A stretch of DNA of 64,000 nucleotides, from assembly GCF_014644295.1 (NCBI RefSeq), contig NZ_BMKK01000001.1, positions 372,001 through 436,000 on the forward strand, read 5' to 3'. The stretch comes from Emticicia aquatilis. GTDB lineage: Bacteria; Bacteroidota; Bacteroidia; Cytophagales; Spirosomataceae. Every line of letters begins with the position of its first letter. Within the stretch, counting starts at the first letter, position 1. The notes under the pieces were generated by a model that did no database searches, was not told the DNA's origin, and saw only the letters and a list, made by a program, of their open reading frames with translations. Positions 22,775 through 55,007 of the stretch are shown here, piece by piece. Both the position numbers and the translations under genes were made by a program.

Positions 22775-25222
22775 ATGATAAAAAAAATACAAGTAGTTTT
22801 AGTACTGTTTTCTATTCTAAGCCATACAATTTTTGCTCAACGAACCTTTACCGTCAGCGGATATATACGTGAAAAAGGCAGTCAAGAGCAACTCATAGGC
22901 GTAAACGTTTACGTACCCAATAGTTCTTTCGGCACGAGCAGCAATAATTATGGTTTTTATTCTATCACACTTCCAGCCAATGATGCCGCTACTTTAGTTT
23001 TTTCGTTTGTGGGCTACGAACGCATCGAGAAAACGTTCGTGCTGAACAAAAATATCGAAATGAACATAGAGTTAGCATCGGCCAATCAGCTCAACGAAGT
23101 TGTAGTTTCATCAAAACGTCAAGAAGAACGAGTGAGCGAGTCGGTGGAGATGAGTAAAATTGATGTACCCATCAATCAAATCAAGAAAATACCAGCTTTC
23201 ATGGGCGAAAAAGATGTTTTGAAGGTGCTTCAACTCCTGCCAGGTGTACAGAAAGGCTCGGAAGGACAGTCGGGAATTTATGTGCGTGGTGGCGGACCTG
23301 ACCAAAACTTGATAATTTTAGATGATGCCGTGGTATATAATGCCAATCACCTATTTGGATTTTTCTCGGTTTTCAATGGCGATGCCCTCAAAAGCGTAGA
23401 ACTCACCAAAGGAGGTTTTCCTGCTCGTTTCGGCGGCCGACTTTCGTCGGTGATTGAAATGAATATGAAAGAAGGAAACAAAGAAAAACTGCATGGTGAA
23501 GGCGGAATCGGACTGATTTCTTCAAGATTAACACTCGAAGGGCCGATTAAGACCAAAAAGCAGGAAACGGCAAAATCATCTTTCATTATTTCTGCCCGAC
23601 GTACTTACTTAGATATTGTCGCTTCGCCACTCATTAAGGCTTCGCAGAAAGATGCTATCGAACAAACTACGGGTGGTTATTATTTTTATGACTTGAACGC
23701 CAAAATGAATTATGATTTTGGGCAAAAGGATAAGGTTTATTTAAGCGGATATTTTGGACAAGATAAATTTCACACTAAAACCACAAGTCCAGATAATTTA
23801 TCGTCGAATGGGTTAAACTGGGGCAACGAAACAGCCACTTTGCGTTGGAATCACCTTTATTCACAGAAGCTTTTTGGCAATTTATCACTCATTTATAGTC
23901 GCTATCGCTTTAATATTAGCTCTACCCAAAATGCTACTGATACCCAAACTAACACAACTTCGGTGTATAATCTAAAATACGATTCAGGTATTAGAGATTA
24001 TTCGGTCAAATACGATTTTGATTATTTTCCGAATCCAAAACACGCCCTAAAGCTTGGAATCCAATCGACATTTCATCGTTTTACACCGAGTGCCGTGGTG
24101 TTGCAAGACTCTGATATCAGCAAATACGAAACAAAAATCGATAATATAGACGTAATAGAATCTGGAATTTATGCCGAAGACGTATGGCAAGCTACTGAGC
24201 GATTAAAAATGAATCTTGGCCTACGGGTGAGCAATTATCATGTTTCGAGCATAGATTATTTGCGTCCAGAGCCACGTTTTTCGGCAGCTTATAAACTTAG
24301 CAAAGATTTGGCTTTTAAGGCTTCTTATGCCATGATGAACCAATATGTGCATTTGCTCACTAACACCGGTATTGGCTTACCAACCGACCTCTGGGTGCCA
24401 AGCACCGATAAAGTTGCTCCGCAACAATCACAGCAAGTGGCGGCGGGTTTTGCCAAAGATTTAGATAAAAAGGGCTTAACTCTTACGATTGAAGGGTATT
24501 ATAAAAAGATGGATAAACTCATCAATTATAAAGAAGGGGCAAGTTTTCTGCTTGTCAACGACCCCACGAGTAATACTCGGGTGCGTTGGGAAGATAATGT
24601 AACGGCTGGGCAAGGGTGGTCGTACGGAGCGGAGTTTTTATTGCAGAAAAAAGTTGGCAAGTTTTCGGGCTGGGCTGGGTACACGCTTTCGTGGACAAAA
24701 TGGCAATTTGATGAACTAAATTTTGGCAAAGAATTTTTCCCTCGATACGACCGCCGACATGATATATCGCTGGTAGGTATTTATGATATAAAACCAAGCA
24801 TTACGGTTTCGGCAGTTTGGGTTTATGGTACGGGTAATGCACTGACGATGCCGCTTTCAAGATATAATGGTTACAGCAATTACAATACTCGTTTTGGGGC
24901 AAATAATGCCATCAATAATTCTAACACGCCTGTAAGCCCACTTTTTGCGGGCAGAGCTGTACAGGAATATGGTGAGAAAAATACTTTCCGAGCCGAGCCG
25001 TATCATAGACTTGATTTGGGAGTGCAGTTTCACAAAAAGAAACTCCGACATGAACGTACTTGGGAAATAAGCATTTATAATGCTTATAATCGTAAGAATC
25101 CGTTTTTTTATCAACTCAATTCAAAAGTTGACCCAAGTAATAGCAGTCAGTCTATCACGATTTTACAGCGTTATTCAATTTTCCCGATTATACCTTCTTT
25201 TAGTTATAATTTTAAGTTTTAG
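22775..25222 (+). CDS. TonB-dependent receptor with carboxypeptidase-regulatory domain
   Basis: An 815-residue outer-membrane receptor; start MIKKIQVVLV at 22775 yields a signal peptide ending near FAQ, while a TTG further upstream would mask it. After the signal comes a CarboxypepD_reg-like Ig-fold domain (SGYIREKGSQEQLIGVNVYV), then the plug (ERVSESVEMSKIDVP to GGFPARFGGRLSSVIE, with IYVRGGGPDQNLIILDDAVV), then the barrel ending YSFNYNFKF-like in an aromatic residue. It imports an unknown ligand using TonB energy. The DUF4249 lipoprotein gene follows after 54 bases and probably forms a receptor-lipoprotein pair with it. Confidence 0.9.
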   Translation: MIKKIQVVLVLFSILSHTIFAQRTFTVSGYIREKGSQEQLIGVNVYVPNSSFGTSSNNYGFYSITLPANDAATLVFSFVGYERIEKTFVLNKNIEMNIELASANQLNEVVVSSKRQEERVSESVEMSKIDVPINQIKKIPAFMGEKDVLKVLQLLPGVQKGSEGQSGIYVRGGGPDQNLIILDDAVVYNANHLFGFFSVFNGDALKSVELTKGGFPARFGGRLSSVIEMNMKEGNKEKLHGEGGIGLISSRLTLEGPIKTKKQETAKSSFIISARRTYLDIVASPLIKASQKDAIEQTTGGYYFYDLNAKMNYDFGQKDKVYLSGYFGQDKFHTKTTSPDNLSSNGLNWGNETATLRWNHLYSQKLFGNLSLIYSRYRFNISSTQNATDTQTNTTSVYNLKYDSGIRDYSVKYDFDYFPNPKHALKLGIQSTFHRFTPSAVVLQDSDISKYETKIDNIDVIESGIYAEDVWQATERLKMNLGLRVSNYHVSSIDYLRPEPRFSAAYKLSKDLAFKASYAMMNQYVHLLTNTGIGLPTDLWVPSTDKVAPQQSQQVAAGFAKDLDKKGLTLTIEGYYKKMDKLINYKEGASFLLVNDPTSNTRVRWEDNVTAGQGWSYGAEFLLQKKVGKFSGWAGYTLSWTKWQFDELNFGKEFFPRYDRRHDISLVGIYDIKPSITVSAVWVYGTGNALTMPLSRYNGYSNYNTRFGANNAINNSNTPVSPLFAGRAVQEYGEKNTFRAEPYHRLDLGVQFHKKKLRHERTWEISIYNAYNRKNPFFYQLNSKVDPSNSSQSITILQRYSIFPIIPSFSYNFKF

Positions 25223-25243
25223 CCTCGGCTCCGCTCGGCTACC
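25222..25243. repeat. Fragment of a palindromic GGCTCCGCTC element
   Basis: GCCTCGGCTCCGCTCGGCTACC directly abuts the stop codon of the TonB receptor. It shares the CGGCTCCGCTC core with the larger element inside the amidotransferase gene at 37206-37305. Confidence 0.5.
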
Positions 25244-35886: not shown

Positions 35887-36630
35887 ATGAAACTCTCTTT
35901 GACTTTTATGCTCTTATTTTTATTTTCCAGCCAAGTTTTTGGACAAATAACCAATAATAAATATGATTATTTTTTGAGAAAGATGCAAATTGCGGGAAGT
36001 AGCGATAGTAAAATAGTTGTAAATAAAAAAAACGGGGATACGACCTTTCAGGCGTATTACAATTCGAGAGATGTGGTAAATAATACGCATCAGGAATTTA
36101 CAAAAACTTACAAAGGAACACCATTTTTCAAAAACGGCTGGTACAAAGGAAAAATAAGCACTGAAAGTGGAAAAGATATGGAGTTTTTGATGGCTTTCAA
36201 TGTACAGAAAAACGAACTTTATATTGTAGAAGACATCAACAAAGATGCCATTGCTATCAAACCCGAAGCATTTACAATAATGGGACATCATTTCAGTAAG
36301 TTTGAAAATGCTTATTATGAGGTTATTCATATCAGTAAAAATACACTTCTGAAAGAGCATTCGTGTATTCTGCACAGCAGTAGCACCGACAAAACTGGCT
36401 ATGAAGCATCTGGTGATTACGAAGGAGAATTCGTAAAGTCTTCCAAGTTTTTTATTCTAAAAGATGAGTCGGTGATTCAACTGCCGAGAAGCAAAAATTT
36501 TCTTAATCTTTTTGGAGACAAAAAGCCTTTAGTTGAGCAGTATGTAAAGGCAAACAATATTAATCTTAAAACAGAAAACGGACTCGTAAGTACTTTCAAA
36601 TACTACGATTCACTCGAAAATCCACAATGA
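35887..36630 (+). CDS. Secreted protein of unknown function, first gene of overlapping trio
   Basis: A 247-residue protein with a signal peptide (MKLSLTFMLLFLFSSQVFGQ). I do not recognise the mature part. It is rich in Lys, Asn and aromatic residues, with beta-like strands such as TFQAYYNSRDVV and ELYIVEDINK and one Cys pair-less body; no catalytic motif stands out. Its stop overlaps the start of the amidotransferase gene in ATGA, and the third gene (HopJ) overlaps that one in TAATG, so the three proteins should be made together. Confidence 0.6.
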   Translation: MKLSLTFMLLFLFSSQVFGQITNNKYDYFLRKMQIAGSSDSKIVVNKKNGDTTFQAYYNSRDVVNNTHQEFTKTYKGTPFFKNGWYKGKISTESGKDMEFLMAFNVQKNELYIVEDINKDAIAIKPEAFTIMGHHFSKFENAYYEVIHISKNTLLKEHSCILHSSSTDKTGYEASGDYEGEFVKSSKFFILKDESVIQLPRSKNFLNLFGDKKPLVEQYVKANNINLKTENGLVSTFKYYDSLENPQ

Positions 36631-37448
36631 AAATAGGTATTACAGATTGCGGAGAAAAACATCCAATCTATGAAAAATGGATTTTGTCGCAAAATGCTTT
36701 GGTCGGAAATTCGCACATCGAAGTAGTCAAACTTGGCTATAAACTCAACAATCTACACGAAATAGAGCAGTGTGATGGTATTATTTTGTCGGGAGGCGAA
36801 GATGTGCATCCAAGTTTATACAACCGTCCTGAGTTTTTGAGTTTATGCAATCCAAATTTCATGGACGAACGCCGTGATGAATTTGAATGGAAAGTATGCG
36901 AATATATTTTCAAAAATCACATCCCTGTTTTAGGAATTTGCCGAGGCTTACAATTTGTGAATGTATTTCTTGGTGGCACGCTAATTCCAGATTTACCGAC
37001 TGCTGGAAAAGAAAATCATTCAAAGTATTTTGAAGGAAAAGACCGTTATCATAATATAGAAATCATACACGATTCCGAACTTTCAAAAATTACCAATATT
37101 GTATTTGGAGATGTCAATTCGGCACATCACCAATCGGCTGATATTATTGCCAAACCGCTAAAAATCAATGCGTTATCTGATGATAGAGTTGTTGAAGGTT
37201 TAGAGTTCGACTTCGCTCACTCACCAAATTTCGACTTCGCCGATTCTGTTAGGTTCGGCTCCGCTCACCCAACAGAACCAGATTCGGTGGCTGAGCGAAG
37301 TCGAAGCCAGCGAATCTTAAGCCAACAAAATCACTATTTAATGCTCGTACAATGGCATCCCGAACGCATCATTAATGCCGAACAAAATAATTTTTCTTAT
37401 AAAATTCGACAAAATTTCGTCGAAAACATTCAATCAAAAATTCAATAA
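36627..37448 (+). CDS. Class I glutamine amidotransferase, gamma-glutamyl-GABA hydrolase-like, with in-frame insertion
   Basis: A 273-residue enzyme of the PuuD/peptidase C26 type. Visible are IILSGGEDVHPSLY (oxyanion region), the nucleophile in GICRGLQ (Cys105), AHHQSAD, and the late catalytic VQWHPER (His244 with Glu246). Between Glu193 and about Gln234 lies a foreign-looking stretch (DFAHSPNFDFADSVRFGSAH and on) coded by a palindromic DNA element; the normal family sequence resumes at NHYLMLVQWHPER. The frame is kept, so the enzyme may still fold with an extra surface loop. Hydrolysis of gamma-glutamyl amides is inferred from family. It overlaps both neighbours. Confidence 0.85.
   Translation: MKIGITDCGEKHPIYEKWILSQNALVGNSHIEVVKLGYKLNNLHEIEQCDGIILSGGEDVHPSLYNRPEFLSLCNPNFMDERRDEFEWKVCEYIFKNHIPVLGICRGLQFVNVFLGGTLIPDLPTAGKENHSKYFEGKDRYHNIEIIHDSELSKITNIVFGDVNSAHHQSADIIAKPLKINALSDDRVVEGLEFDFAHSPNFDFADSVRFGSAHPTEPDSVAERSRSQRILSQQNHYLMLVQWHPERIINAEQNNFSYKIRQNFVENIQSKIQ
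37206..37305. repeat. Palindromic element inserted in frame in a coding region
   Basis: Outer arms TTCGACTTCGCTCA (37206-37219) and TGAGCGAAGTCGAA (37292-37305) are exact complements. Inside are a second TTCGACTTCGCC copy, GGTTCGGCTCCGCTCACCC, and an inner CTGTTAGG/CCCAACAG pair. The left arm starts exactly at codon 194. The full insertion may reach about 37325. A related fragment is at 25222-25243. Confidence 0.8.
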
Positions 37449-37792
37449 TGACACTCGATTCTTTTCTAAAAAAACTCAACAAAACCCCTAAAGAAGTAGC
37501 ATTTACAGATACTATGGCCGTTGTGGAAGCACTCTATGATTTTACGCCAACGGCTTTCCAAAATGGAGATTTACACAACGAAGCTGGACAAAACTCTGGC
37601 TCATGCAAATTATTTTCATTCGCAAAACTTCAAAGTTTTTCGGTAGAACAAACCCTTGCTTGCTTTGGTGATTTTTACCGCAAAGATGTACTCGAAAACC
37701 CCGATGCAACGAACCATCAAAATATCAGAAACTTTATGAAAACTGGTTGGGAAGGAATTTCTTTTGAAGGAACAGCACTGACGGAGAAATAA
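37448..37792 (+). CDS. HopJ-family protein
   Basis: A 114-residue protein of the HopJ type III effector family. The diagnostic block is NEAGQNSGSCKLFSFAKLQS, followed by ACFGDFYRKDVLENPDA and NIRNFMKTGWEGISFEG. Although named for a Pseudomonas effector, the family is widespread in bacteria without type III secretion and its function is unknown. Here it begins within the stop of the amidotransferase gene (TAATG), which points to a shared task with that enzyme. Confidence 0.88.
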   Translation: MTLDSFLKKLNKTPKEVAFTDTMAVVEALYDFTPTAFQNGDLHNEAGQNSGSCKLFSFAKLQSFSVEQTLACFGDFYRKDVLENPDATNHQNIRNFMKTGWEGISFEGTALTEK

Positions 37793-37806
37793 ACATAAAA
37801 TCTACA

Positions 37807-37842
37807 ATGCGTGGCACATTTGAGTGTGCCACGCATATTTTT
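37807..37842. terminator. Bidirectional intrinsic terminator
   Basis: ATGCGTGGCAC (37807-37817) and GTGCCACGCAT (37826-37836), followed by ATTTTT. It separates the HopJ gene from the convergent MutS-like gene, whose stop it overlaps by a base or two. Confidence 0.85.
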
Positions 37843-39649
37843 AGAGTTTCTCGCCAATCGGCAAACCAATAGACTTCAATAAAAGCGAGGCATTAAAACT
37901 TTTACAAACGCCTTCTTTTATCAAATAATCGAATAATAATTCGCCATTTTCCGTGGCGTACTCGAAGTAATAATTTTTTACTACATCGGGATACTGCTCC
38001 GAAATTTCGGTCATACGCAAATCGTGAGTAGCCACCATTGCATAAGCATTTGAGTTGACAATTTTCTCTAACAAAGCCATCGAGCCCGCCAATTTATCTT
38101 CCGAATTTGTTCCTCTCAACATTTCGTCAATCAAAAATAAGGCATTTTCATTATTATTAATTGCCGCCAAAACGAGCTTAATTCGCTCAATTTCTGCCTT
38201 AAAAGTTGAAGCATTTTGCTGAATAGAATCTTTGATTCGCATATAACAAATCAGTTTTATACCATCACTTACACTCATTTTCTTGGCAAAAACTGGGCAG
38301 CCAGTATACGCCAAAATGATATTTAGCCCAACCGTACGCAAAAATGTACTTTTACCCGACATATTTGAGCCAGTAATGAGCGTCAGTCGATTTTTTTCGT
38401 CAAAATCAAAACTATTACAAACTACATTTTTGGTATTGATGAGTGGATGCCCCATTTCTACACCATTTAATTGAAATGTTTTACTATCATTTATTTCTGG
38501 AAAACACCAATCTGGCTTATTGAAATGTAGGTTTCCGATGCTGGCATAGAGCTCAAAAATACCAATTACGTCAAAAATTTTCTCAAAAAAATCAGGGTTT
38601 TCTTTCAGCCACGCCCTCAGTTTAATTAACTGAACTGGCTGAAAGGGAGTAGCCAAAGTCAAGAAAAGCGAAGCCAACATATTGCGTCGCATATCAAGTT
38701 TTTTAAGAATCACCACAAAATCATCAATCGGATTTTTAGTATTTAGTTTTGAAATCGGCAATCGTTTGTGAGCTGTTTTCAGAATTTCTGACTGCCAATT
38801 TTCTTGAGCGATAAGCCCAGTTGCAACACCAAATTTTTCCATCAAACGCCCCGCTCCTGCAACCGTTTCAAAATATTCTTCCGTGTGATTGCGGTTAATG
38901 CCAGTAAGTCTGAAATTTATCAAAGCCAAAGCTGCCACACCATAACCAGCAAAAGATGGCGACACAAAATAGGCAGAAGCAAAGACCGCTACCCACAAAA
39001 AAGGTAAGATTTTGGCATAAATCGCAATGAATTTCTCCAATTTCAACACTGGCGGATGCTCAATTTGGTTAAGCACTTTGCTCACGCCTCGCTCCTCGTT
39101 AGAAATCTTAAACATCGAAGCAAAAAAGCTCAAACGCCAGTCAGTTTTGGCCGCCATTTCTTTGGCAGCTTCTTGTTTTTGGCCAATTGAAAAAGTTTGA
39201 TTTTCACCCAAAAGCTGTTGAGCCAAGTAATCACTTCCCGACTTACTTTTTGTTCGGTTTATCAGATGAAAAAGCGTTCCTTCGCCGAAAACATCTAAAT
39301 CTTCACTAAAATTATGCGTTGGTCGGCTGTATTCTTGACCATTGTAATACATTCCCGAAATTCCCTCCAAACACGTCAATTCATTTTTAATCACGGCGAG
39401 CGTTGTTTCTTTTAAATCAACCTCGGCATCAATTTTTTCGTGATGTTTTACTAAATAATAGAAACCTAAAATGCCGCCAATAATTGATAGTCCTCCAAGT
39501 ATTTCATTGAGTTTAAAAAGCTGATATACCACAATTAATAATCCAATTATCAGCAATAATCGGTACATCGAAATCTGGTCGCTTTTCTTTTTTAAGGTGG
39601 CTATTTCGGTAAGTAATGTGGCTATTTTTTCTTGATAAGTCTTTTCCAT
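37841..39649 (-). CDS. Membrane-anchored MutS-like ATPase
   Basis: A 602-residue protein; start MEKTYQEKIA at 39649, supported by a -7 box 24 bases upstream. The C-terminal third is a MutS domain V: Walker A GSNMSGKST, the Q-loop-like region, Walker B FLIDEMLRGTNSEDK and VATHDLRM. The middle is a MutS core/lever region. Unlike MutS1, there is no mismatch-recognition domain, and two pairs of hydrophobic segments are present (about 45-80 and about 220-255). This marks the membrane-bound MutS homologues of Bacteroidota, which have no proven repair role. It is divergently arranged with the aldehyde dehydrogenase gene. Confidence 0.82.
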   Translation of the reverse strand: MEKTYQEKIATLLTEIATLKKKSDQISMYRLLLIIGLLIVVYQLFKLNEILGGLSIIGGILGFYYLVKHHEKIDAEVDLKETTLAVIKNELTCLEGISGMYYNGQEYSRPTHNFSEDLDVFGEGTLFHLINRTKSKSGSDYLAQQLLGENQTFSIGQKQEAAKEMAAKTDWRLSFFASMFKISNEERGVSKVLNQIEHPPVLKLEKFIAIYAKILPFLWVAVFASAYFVSPSFAGYGVAALALINFRLTGINRNHTEEYFETVAGAGRLMEKFGVATGLIAQENWQSEILKTAHKRLPISKLNTKNPIDDFVVILKKLDMRRNMLASLFLTLATPFQPVQLIKLRAWLKENPDFFEKIFDVIGIFELYASIGNLHFNKPDWCFPEINDSKTFQLNGVEMGHPLINTKNVVCNSFDFDEKNRLTLITGSNMSGKSTFLRTVGLNIILAYTGCPVFAKKMSVSDGIKLICYMRIKDSIQQNASTFKAEIERIKLVLAAINNNENALFLIDEMLRGTNSEDKLAGSMALLEKIVNSNAYAMVATHDLRMTEISEQYPDVVKNYYFEYATENGELLFDYLIKEGVCKSFNASLLLKSIGLPIGEKL

Positions 39650-53651: not shown

Positions 53652-55007
53652 CTACAAATGCAAGAGCAAATTAGCAATCATCAAGTAAGTACCAATACCG
53701 ATAATATCGTTGGCTGTTGTGATAAATGGTCCTGAAGCAATGGCAGGATTTATACCCAATCTATCCAATAAAAGTGGCGTGACTGTACCCGTAAAAGAAG
53801 CCAAAACCACCACCGAAAGTAGCGATAAACACACAACAAAAAACAGTTGTGTTTCGCCACTGACATAAATATAAAGTCCTGCTAATGAGCCAATTATAAT
53901 GCCGTTTACAAGTGCAACCAAAATAATTTTAAACAAACGTTGCCCCAAACTGGTCGTTAGACCTGATTTTTCGGCCAAACTCTGCACAATTAAAGAGGAG
54001 GTCTGAATGCCCACATTTCCGCCCGTCGAACCCATGATTGGAATAAAAGCCGCCAGTGCCGCTACTTTTTTGAACTCATCTTCAAAACTCCCGATAACTG
54101 TGGCGGCCAATAAACTACCTATTACGCCCACTATCAACCAAGGCAAACGAGCTTTTGCCAATTGCCACACACTATCGTCTTCCTCGGCTTCGCCCGTGAT
54201 ACCCGCCATTACCTGAATATCTTCTTCGGCTTTATCAGTAATAAAATCGACCACGTCATCAATCGTGATTCGACCCAACAAACGCCCCAAAGTATTCACG
54301 ACAGGAATTGCGTCAAGGTCATAGCGTTGCATGATTTCGGCTACTTCTTCGGCTGGGCGAGTGGTTTCTACGTAAACTATTTCTTCATCAAAAATATTTT
54401 CAATTTTGGTGTTTTTACGAGCTAAAATAATACGTTTTAATGATACAATTCCTTTTAATTTCTGCTCGTCATCAACCACGTAAACGGCATAAACTTTTTC
54501 GACATCTTCGGCTTGCCGACGAATCTCTTCCACACAGTCACTGACCGTCCAATTGGCATTTACTTTTATCAACTCTTTTTGCATCAAACCGCCCGCCACG
54601 TCTTCCGGATAATGCAACATATCCAAGATAAATCGTGCTTGCTCACGGTCTTCGATGAGGGCAATTACTTTTTCACGTACTTCAATAGTTTGTTCGTTGA
54701 GTAAGTCAACGGCATCATCGGAATCAAAAAGATTGACGTATTTGGCAATTTCTTCGACCGTAAAACGCTCTTTGATAAATCGTTTGCGGTCGTCTGGCTC
54801 AATGTGCGACAAGATTTCGGCCCCCATCTCGGTATCGACGAGTGTCATTAAATAGTGAGCGGGTTCACCATCAAGTTCGAGCAATATACTGGCAATATCG
54901 GCAGGATACAACTCTTCCATCTCGGCCTTGAGCAAGGTTTCGTCTTTTTGCTCAATGGCAGTTTCTATTTTCTCTAAATACTCTTTGGTTAGCTCGAAAG
55001 TTGTCAT
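53652..55007 (-). CDS. mgtE: Magnesium transporter MgtE
   Basis: A 451-residue magnesium channel. Residues about 1-130 are the acidic superhelical N domain, 135-255 two CBS domains, then the plug helix and five transmembrane segments. The channel motifs are visible: FIPIMGSTGGNVGIQTSSLI and, near the end, LLLDRLGINPAIASGPFITT and TTANDIIGIGTY with the pore Asp. Family members close when cytosolic Mg is high by binding it in the N and CBS domains. The gene lies 72 bases after rsmA on the same strand. Confidence 0.95.
   Translation of the reverse strand: MTTFELTKEYLEKIETAIEQKDETLLKAEMEELYPADIASILLELDGEPAHYLMTLVDTEMGAEILSHIEPDDRKRFIKERFTVEEIAKYVNLFDSDDAVDLLNEQTIEVREKVIALIEDREQARFILDMLHYPEDVAGGLMQKELIKVNANWTVSDCVEEIRRQAEDVEKVYAVYVVDDEQKLKGIVSLKRIILARKNTKIENIFDEEIVYVETTRPAEEVAEIMQRYDLDAIPVVNTLGRLLGRITIDDVVDFITDKAEEDIQVMAGITGEAEEDDSVWQLAKARLPWLIVGVIGSLLAATVIGSFEDEFKKVAALAAFIPIMGSTGGNVGIQTSSLIVQSLAEKSGLTTSLGQRLFKIILVALVNGIIIGSLAGLYIYVSGETQLFFVVCLSLLSVVVLASFTGTVTPLLLDRLGINPAIASGPFITTANDIIGIGTYLMIANLLLHL

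What the first reader, a model, noticed from the sequence alone, without database searches (positions are those of the whole stretch)
37206..37325. Palindromic repeat inserted in frame between catalytic residues of an enzyme
A roughly 100-120 base element with 14-base perfect terminal arms (TTCGACTTCGCTCA and its complement) lies in the amidotransferase gene. It starts at codon 194 and adds about 40 codons without breaking the frame, between the Cys105 nucleophile and the VQWHPER His. This is like the coding palindromic elements described in Rickettsia. A related fragment abuts the stop at 25222.
Basis: partly seen in the sequence, partly recalled or inferred. Interest (0 to 1): 0.7.

Follow-up and report, generated by a model that had tools for sequence, protein, structure and literature searches.

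The report
Coding palindromic repeats in Emticicia enzymes
A small hairpin-forming DNA repeat has lodged, without breaking the reading frame, in loops of several ordinary enzymes of an Emticicia bacterium, and comparison with related species suggests that it keeps being rewritten and sometimes flipped in place.

Summary
Window 37206-37325 is a 40-codon, in-frame, lineage-specific insert in a class C26 glutamine amidotransferase of an Emticicia species. It is not one 120-base element with terminal arms. It is a cluster of four short units, each a 14-base core (TTCGRCTNCGCTCA) between arms that vary but stay complementary. The exact core occurs 57 times in the genome (control 0); by my reading 14 lie inside 11 genes. 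Five genes were compared across the genus: only species of one Emticicia clade carry core-derived residues, the outgroups none. The net gain is 33-36 residues in the amidotransferase but only 2 in AtuA. All five stop-free frames of the core are used, so the DNA, not a peptide, is what spreads. AlphaFold2 gives the window insert as a disordered loop outside a confident core. At three of six orthologous sites the core is inverted between kept arms, as template switching between inverted repeats would do. Intragenic REPs and Rickettsia RPEs are known. This family has neither tag (GTAG, CGTC), and no Y1 transposase was found beside it. Verdict: a new variant of a known kind, most likely selfish or neutral DNA tolerated in loops.

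The parts
36627..37448 (+). Host gene: class C26 glutamine amidotransferase (PuuD/SpuA/lin1909-like), 273 aa; Cys105 nucleophile, His244 and Glu246 in VQWHPE (residue roles recalled from the family)
   Evidence: Pfam PF07722; Foldseek 3fij, 6vtv, 7d53; Cys105, His244, Glu246 invariant in 35 of 35
37206..37325 (+). Insert of 40 codons (194-233); net gain 33 residues over the G007 orthologue and 36 over G001, G002, G003, G008
   Evidence: Orthologue comparison; pLDDT below 50 for residues 200-232
37203..37222 (+). Unit 1: GAG arm, core 37206-37219, CTC arm
37230..37243 (+). Unit 2: decayed core (2 mismatches); the stretch is missing in the shorter loops of G005, G009 and G010
37245..37276 (+). 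Unit 3: arm 37245-37253, core 37254-37267, arm 37268-37276
37281..37316 (-). Unit 4: arm 37281-37291, core 37292-37305 on the - strand, arm 37306-37316; the core is the other way round in orthologue G006
25220..25241 (+). Isolated unit of the same family at the end of the preceding ORF; its left arm includes the stop codon TAG; core 25224-25237 with a C...G end pair

Best explanation
The insert is a cluster of units of a REP-like palindromic repeat family that entered a loop of the amidotransferase in the ancestor of one Emticicia clade. It persisted because the core has no stop in five of its six frames and because the loop tolerates extra residues. Shown: repetition, in-frame insertion, clade restriction, complementary but variable arms, changes in unit number, and in-place inversion of the core in relatives. 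Inferred: after arrival the hairpins are remodelled by polymerase template switching between the inverted arms, which keeps the arms complementary and flips the core; the extra peptide has no catalytic role; the first spread needed some mobilising activity that is not identified.
For: Core: 57 exact copies in the genome, reversed-pattern control 0. Arms: the inner three positions pair in 86.5% of cells against at most 51.8% when slid by 1-3 bases; positions 4-12 pair in 55.9% against at most 34.9%; 40 of 57 copies have perfectly complementary inner triplets, of 12 kinds. In the 77 copies with up to 1 mismatch, positions 1-3 each exceed the largest of 500 shuffles. Amidotransferase loop between GLE and LVQWHPE: 46, 46, 33, 33, 27 residues in G000, G006, G009, G005, G010; 13 in G007; 10 in G001, G002, G003, G008; no match in G004. 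The insert-bearing species are split from G007 and the rest with support 100. Core-derived residues absent from the outgroups in four more genes. AtuA loop: a 33-base segment of G010 matches G006 at 31 of 33 inverted and 18 of 33 direct. Intergenic hairpin: core one way in G009 and G004, the other way in G000, shortened in G006, absent in G007. Amidotransferase unit 4 against G006: 13 of 14 inverted, 4 of 14 direct. Residues 200-232 predicted disordered.
Against: Inversion was seen at 3 of 6 orthologous sites; the aminopeptidase, altronate-dehydratase-like and Kdo transferase sites show none, and opposite insertions at one site are not strictly excluded for the amidotransferase. Not every compared gene is a clean insertion: AtuA gains only 2 residues in G000 and G010 (7 in G004 and G006), and in the Kdo transferase G005, G009 and G010 have core-like residues with no gain over G007. 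The altronate-dehydratase-like loop is as long or longer without any core in G009 (25) and G004 (33) as with it in G000 (26), so loops of this kind also grow by other means. No transposase is linked (0 of 39 loci), and no target-site duplication was defined. The core was what I searched for, so its conservation is partly by construction. Lack of function of the added peptide is untested. Most branches inside the clade are weakly supported (48-66).
Confidence: 0.8

Rival explanations
1. The units are REP sequences mobilised by an IS200/IS605-type Y1 transposase (RAYT), and each insert is a separate transposition.
For: Short imperfect palindromes, sometimes in opposite pairs; 10 Y1_Tnp matches in the genome. 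Four genus members with 14 or more copies have many Y1 matches (G000 10, G006 9, G005 8, G009 8).
Against: 0 of 39 fetched Y1_Tnp loci (2670-3360 bases each) hold the exact core YTCGRCTNCGCTCR; with two mismatches allowed, one hit in the own ten. Not every Y1 match was fetched. G004 and G010 have 20 and 18 copies with 4 and 3 Y1 matches; G034, with 148 copies, has one weak Y1 match. No consistent GTAG tag. Variable arms are not what copying of one fixed palindrome gives.
Confidence: 0.3
2. The core is a conserved loop of intrinsic terminators (an RNA-level signal), and the genic copies are strays of it.
For: Several intergenic copies sit in long hairpins flanked by A and T tracts; one such hairpin holds the core where G007 has a hairpin without it.
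Against: The core lies in both orientations in the same hairpin in different species, which a strand-specific RNA signal would hardly tolerate; 14 of 57 exact cores lie inside genes by my reading; copy number varies from 0 to 47 within the genus.
Confidence: 0.2
3. The added peptide is a selected, functional loop of the enzyme (for instance a partner-binding site).
For: Kept in all five clade genomes in which the gene was found.
Against: Loop length 27-46 residues, different residues, changed unit number and an inverted unit among close relatives; predicted disorder; core-derived residues in unrelated enzymes in all five open frames.
Confidence: 0.06

Closest known systems
RPE (Rickettsia palindromic elements)
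   Same: Palindromic repeats in frame inside unrelated, apparently functional proteins (PMC3733652, passages read)
   Different: PMC3733652 files intragenic R. conorii repeats (RPE-4, RPE-6) under CGTC-tagged repeats; the present core is untagged, with variable arms, in a Bacteroidota genus (free-living by recall)
REP / BIME with RAYT transposases (GTAG family)
   Same: Short imperfect palindromes in many copies, mostly outside genes; intragenic copies reported in several species (PMC3733652, passages read)
   Different: No consistent GTAG tag; arms vary; no Y1 gene found beside the copies
Template switching between inverted repeats (yeast coding genes, PMC8604942, abstract and outline seen)
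   Same: Arm homogenisation and spacer inversion inside coding DNA, changing several residues at once
   Different: There up to five neighbouring residues in yeast genes; here a repeated cassette in a loop, with larger changes; the mechanism is inferred here
PuuD / SpuA / lin1909 amidotransferases (PDB 6vtv, 7d4r, 3fij)
   Same: Fold of the host enzyme
   Different: 3fij and 7d4r have only a few residues where the insert lies (alignments; their second aligned piece is weak)

Membership tests
GTAG REP family | Terminal GTAG tetranucleotide | tested here: not met
   GTAG within 20 bases in 0 left and 4 right flanks, CTAC in 3 and 2, of 57 copies
GTAG REP family | RAYT (Y1) transposase gene flanked by the repeat | tested here: not met
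   0 of 39 fetched Y1_Tnp loci (L009-L018, L214-L242) have the exact core; not every Y1 match was fetched
CGTC REP family / RPE-4 and RPE-6 | Terminal CGTC tetranucleotide and conserved 8-9 base stem | tested here: not met
   CGTC in 0 left and 1 right, GACG in 1 and 0, of 57; 12 kinds of complementary inner triplet
REP in the broad sense (definition in PMC12306157) | Short palindrome with a shared motif in multiple copies | tested here: met
   57 exact cores, arms complementary
REP in the broad sense (definition in PMC12306157) | Seldom overlaps coding regions | tested here: inconclusive
   By my reading, 14 of 57 exact cores lie inside 11 ORFs of 200 aa or more; 5 of the 11 were compared with orthologues
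Coding palindromic element of the RPE kind | In-frame, repeat-derived residues absent from outgroup orthologues | tested here: met
   5 of 5 genes compared; gain over G007: amidotransferase 33, Kdo transferase 20, aminopeptidase 13, altronate-dehydratase-like 11, AtuA 2. For the altronate-dehydratase-like gene G007 is the only outgroup; G001, G002, G003, G008 gave only distant homologues
Coding palindromic element of the RPE kind | Host protein made and active | not testable with these tools
   No expression or activity data
Rfam RNA family | Match to a curated family | tested here: not met
   No match up to E 1 in window 36000-38000

The most novel reading that the evidence does not exclude
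An untagged palindrome family in which the loop, not the stem, is the conserved and heritable part. The core would enter hairpins or loops already present, take over or rebuild its arms by template switching, and flip in place, so that inside genes it acts as a small invertible cassette that swaps one peptide for another (in the AtuA loop RGFDFAQPPIS in G000 against WWLSEAEAPIP in G010) without breaking the frame. Its distribution is patchy over the phylum Bacteroidota.
Probability: 0.3. Interest if true: 0.68.

Novelty: new variant of a known kind. Interest (0 to 1): 0.52.

Why it matters
Coding palindromes are best known from Rickettsia (recalled), and intragenic REPs in other bacteria are listed in PMC3733652. 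Here several enzymes of an Emticicia species carry them, and its relatives form a series: no core, one unit, several units, flipped unit. That makes two questions testable: how new loops are added to enzymes, and whether template switching keeps repeat hairpins perfect and rewrites peptides in steps of several residues.

Tried and rejected
Single-element reading (120 bases with 14-base terminal arms): rejected, because the 14-mer is the core of each unit and two more cores lie inside. RAYT-mobilised REP: not supported, kept as a rival. RNA family: no Rfam match. The one-mismatch match at 54183 is in coding sequence of a 451-aa ORF that looks MgtE-like (name recalled), without arms: taken as chance. 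L125 (AraC-like by recall) holds an exact core in what looks like ordinary conserved sequence and was left out of the genic count; L077:1518, L105 and L113 lie at ORF ends and were also left out. L092 and L107 were counted but lack complementary arms and may be chance. Full-text searches: six spellings of the core found 0 papers; 'Emticicia' with 'palindrom' found 3 papers, seen as a listing only, none on repeats by title.

Full report
What is there. The window lies in contig 1 (372001-436000) of a 6.75-Mb genome. The closest relatives of its amidotransferase in the named collection are Emticicia and Cytophagaceae metagenome genomes at 83-86% identity in the best segment, then named Emticicia isolates. 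The gene at 36627-37448 encodes a 273-residue class C26 glutamine amidotransferase, closest in fold to lin1909, PuuD and SpuA. From codon 194 to 233 it carries residues that 30 of 35 aligned sequences lack.

Anatomy. The 14-mer occurs 19 times in the genome, TTCGRCTYCGCTCA with up to one mismatch 77 times against 8 for the reversed control, and exact TTCGRCTNCGCTCA 57 times against 0. I read the surroundings of all 77 (three lie in the window). The bases on either side differ from copy to copy yet pair with each other. In the 57 exact copies the inner three positions are Watson-Crick in 86.5% of cells, at best 51.8% after sliding; positions 4-12 are 55.9% against at best 34.9%; 40 of 57 have perfectly complementary inner triplets, in 12 kinds. 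In the 77-copy set positions 1-3 each exceed the largest of 500 shuffles; position 4 does not. Two cautions: the core was the search key, so its constancy is partly by construction; and the arms are not wholly free, with A at right position 4 in 61 of 77 and C at right position 6 in 57 of 77. Three hairpins reach at least 16 pairs, G-T allowed, the longest that I scored (L073, L100, L109); L073 and L100 carry A and T tracts and look like terminators. The window insert is four such units, one decayed and one on the other strand.

Other genes. By my reading, 14 of the 57 exact cores lie inside 11 ORFs of at least 200 residues (3 of them in the window gene). I left out L125, which looks like ordinary conserved sequence, and L077:1518, L105 and L113 at ORF ends; L092 and L107 are counted but have no complementary arms. 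All ten ORFs besides the window's match Pfam families. Five of the eleven genes were compared across 11 genomes of the genus: amidotransferase, M17 aminopeptidase (L124), altronate-dehydratase-like (L115), Kdo transferase (L079) and AtuA (L122). In all five the own genome and some relatives of one clade carry core-derived residues and the outgroups do not. The details differ. Aminopeptidase: G000, G006 and G010 carry them (30-36 residues); G005, G009 and G007 have 17, four outgroups 20. Altronate-dehydratase-like: only G000 and G006 carry cores (26); G007, the only outgroup with an orthologue, has 15; but G009 (25) and G004 (33) have long loops without a core. Kdo transferase: G000 and G006 47, G004 31, outgroups 27-30; G005, G009 and G010 have core-like residues with no gain over G007 (27). 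AtuA: 18 in G000 and G010, 23 in G004 and G006, 16 in the five outgroups; G005 and G009 gave no match. So the core can also stand in for loop residues rather than only add to them. The other six genes were not compared. The peptides read FDFA, STSL, RLRS, ERSR and SEAE, that is every frame of the core without a stop, which says that the DNA is what spreads.

History. A tree from four of these proteins splits G000, G004, G005, G006, G009 and G010 from G007 and G001/G002/G003/G008 with support 100; inside the clade support is 48-66 except for G005 with G009 at 100 (partial data for G004, G005, G009, G010). The amidotransferase loop has 10 residues in four outgroups, 13 in G007, and 27, 33, 33, 46 and 46 in G010, G005, G009, G006 and G000; G004, 81% complete, gave no match. 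One old insertion followed by remodelling is the simplest account for this gene.

Remodelling. At three of six orthologous sites the core is flipped. AtuA: a 33-base segment of G010 agrees with G006 at 31 of 33 inverted and 18 of 33 direct, with the unequal inner arms swapped. Amidotransferase: unit 4 of the window is inverted in G006 with similar arms in place (9 of 11 and 8 of 11). Hairpin at L100: G009 and G004 hold the core one way, G000 the other way with perfect arms, G006 a shortened core, G007 a hairpin without core, G010 a different hairpin; G005 was cut by a contig end and G001, G002, G003 and G008 matched on one side only, so were not read. At the aminopeptidase, altronate-dehydratase-like and Kdo transferase sites I saw no flip. 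Arm homogenisation with spacer inversion is what template switching between inverted repeats does (PMC8604942, abstract and outline seen). That this is the mechanism here is inference.

Effect on the enzyme. AlphaFold2 from 35 aligned sequences gives mean pLDDT 85, with residues 200-232 below 50, between strands 189-194 and 238-241. Cys105, His244 and Glu246 are invariant. I infer a tolerated floppy loop; activity is untested.

Spread and mobilisation. Of 198 Bacteroidota genomes 101 have at least one exact core; many have one or two, which can be chance, but some have many (195, 148, 94 and 92 in G039, G034, G053 and G210); the control is at most 2 in any genome. In the genus, copies of TTCGRCTYCGCTCA range from 0 (G003, G007) to 47 (G006). 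Y1 transposase genes are present, but none of the 39 loci fetched holds the exact core, and G034 has 148 copies with one weak Y1 match. What spreads the core is unknown.

What is known. PMC3733652 (passages read) describes GTAG and CGTC REPs, reports intragenic copies in several species, and identifies intragenic R. conorii repeats as RPE-4 and RPE-6. Its held text has no 'inversion' or 'template switch'. PMC12306157 (passages read) defines REPs as seldom overlapping genes and tabulates two Flavobacterium species. Six spellings of the core occur in no paper of the library. The phenomenon is thus known; the family, its loop-conserved build and the in-frame flips are, as far as these searches reach, not described.

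Noticed in passing
G021 contig C40:220803-222177: 17 exact cores in about 1.4 kb, mostly 43-44 bases apart: a tandem array of the same core in another genus of the family.
   Followed up: no
G006 C5:1010423-1010528: Five cores spaced exactly 23 bases, which looks like a tandem expansion of a unit.
   Followed up: no
L124 (G000 C12:161092-162618): The aminopeptidase insert lies a few residues before the conserved KGVTFDTGG stretch, near the catalytic part of the enzyme (role recalled).
   Followed up: partly
L116:2-2509: Units reading ERSR and SEAE sit just before the Pyr_redox match that starts at residue 515; orthologues not compared.
   Followed up: no
L159 (G004, altronate-dehydratase-like gene): At the same loop G004 has 33 residues with no core but a repetitive TNNQS-like stretch, so this loop also grows by another repeat.
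   Followed up: no
window 37448-37792: The next gene is a 114-aa HopJ-family protein (PF08888, E 1.8e-51); the Pfam name says effector, which need not hold in this host.
   Followed up: no
L071, L089: Longer relatives of the unit (TGAGCGAATCGGAC... type) stand opposite ordinary units at two intergenic sites.
   Followed up: no
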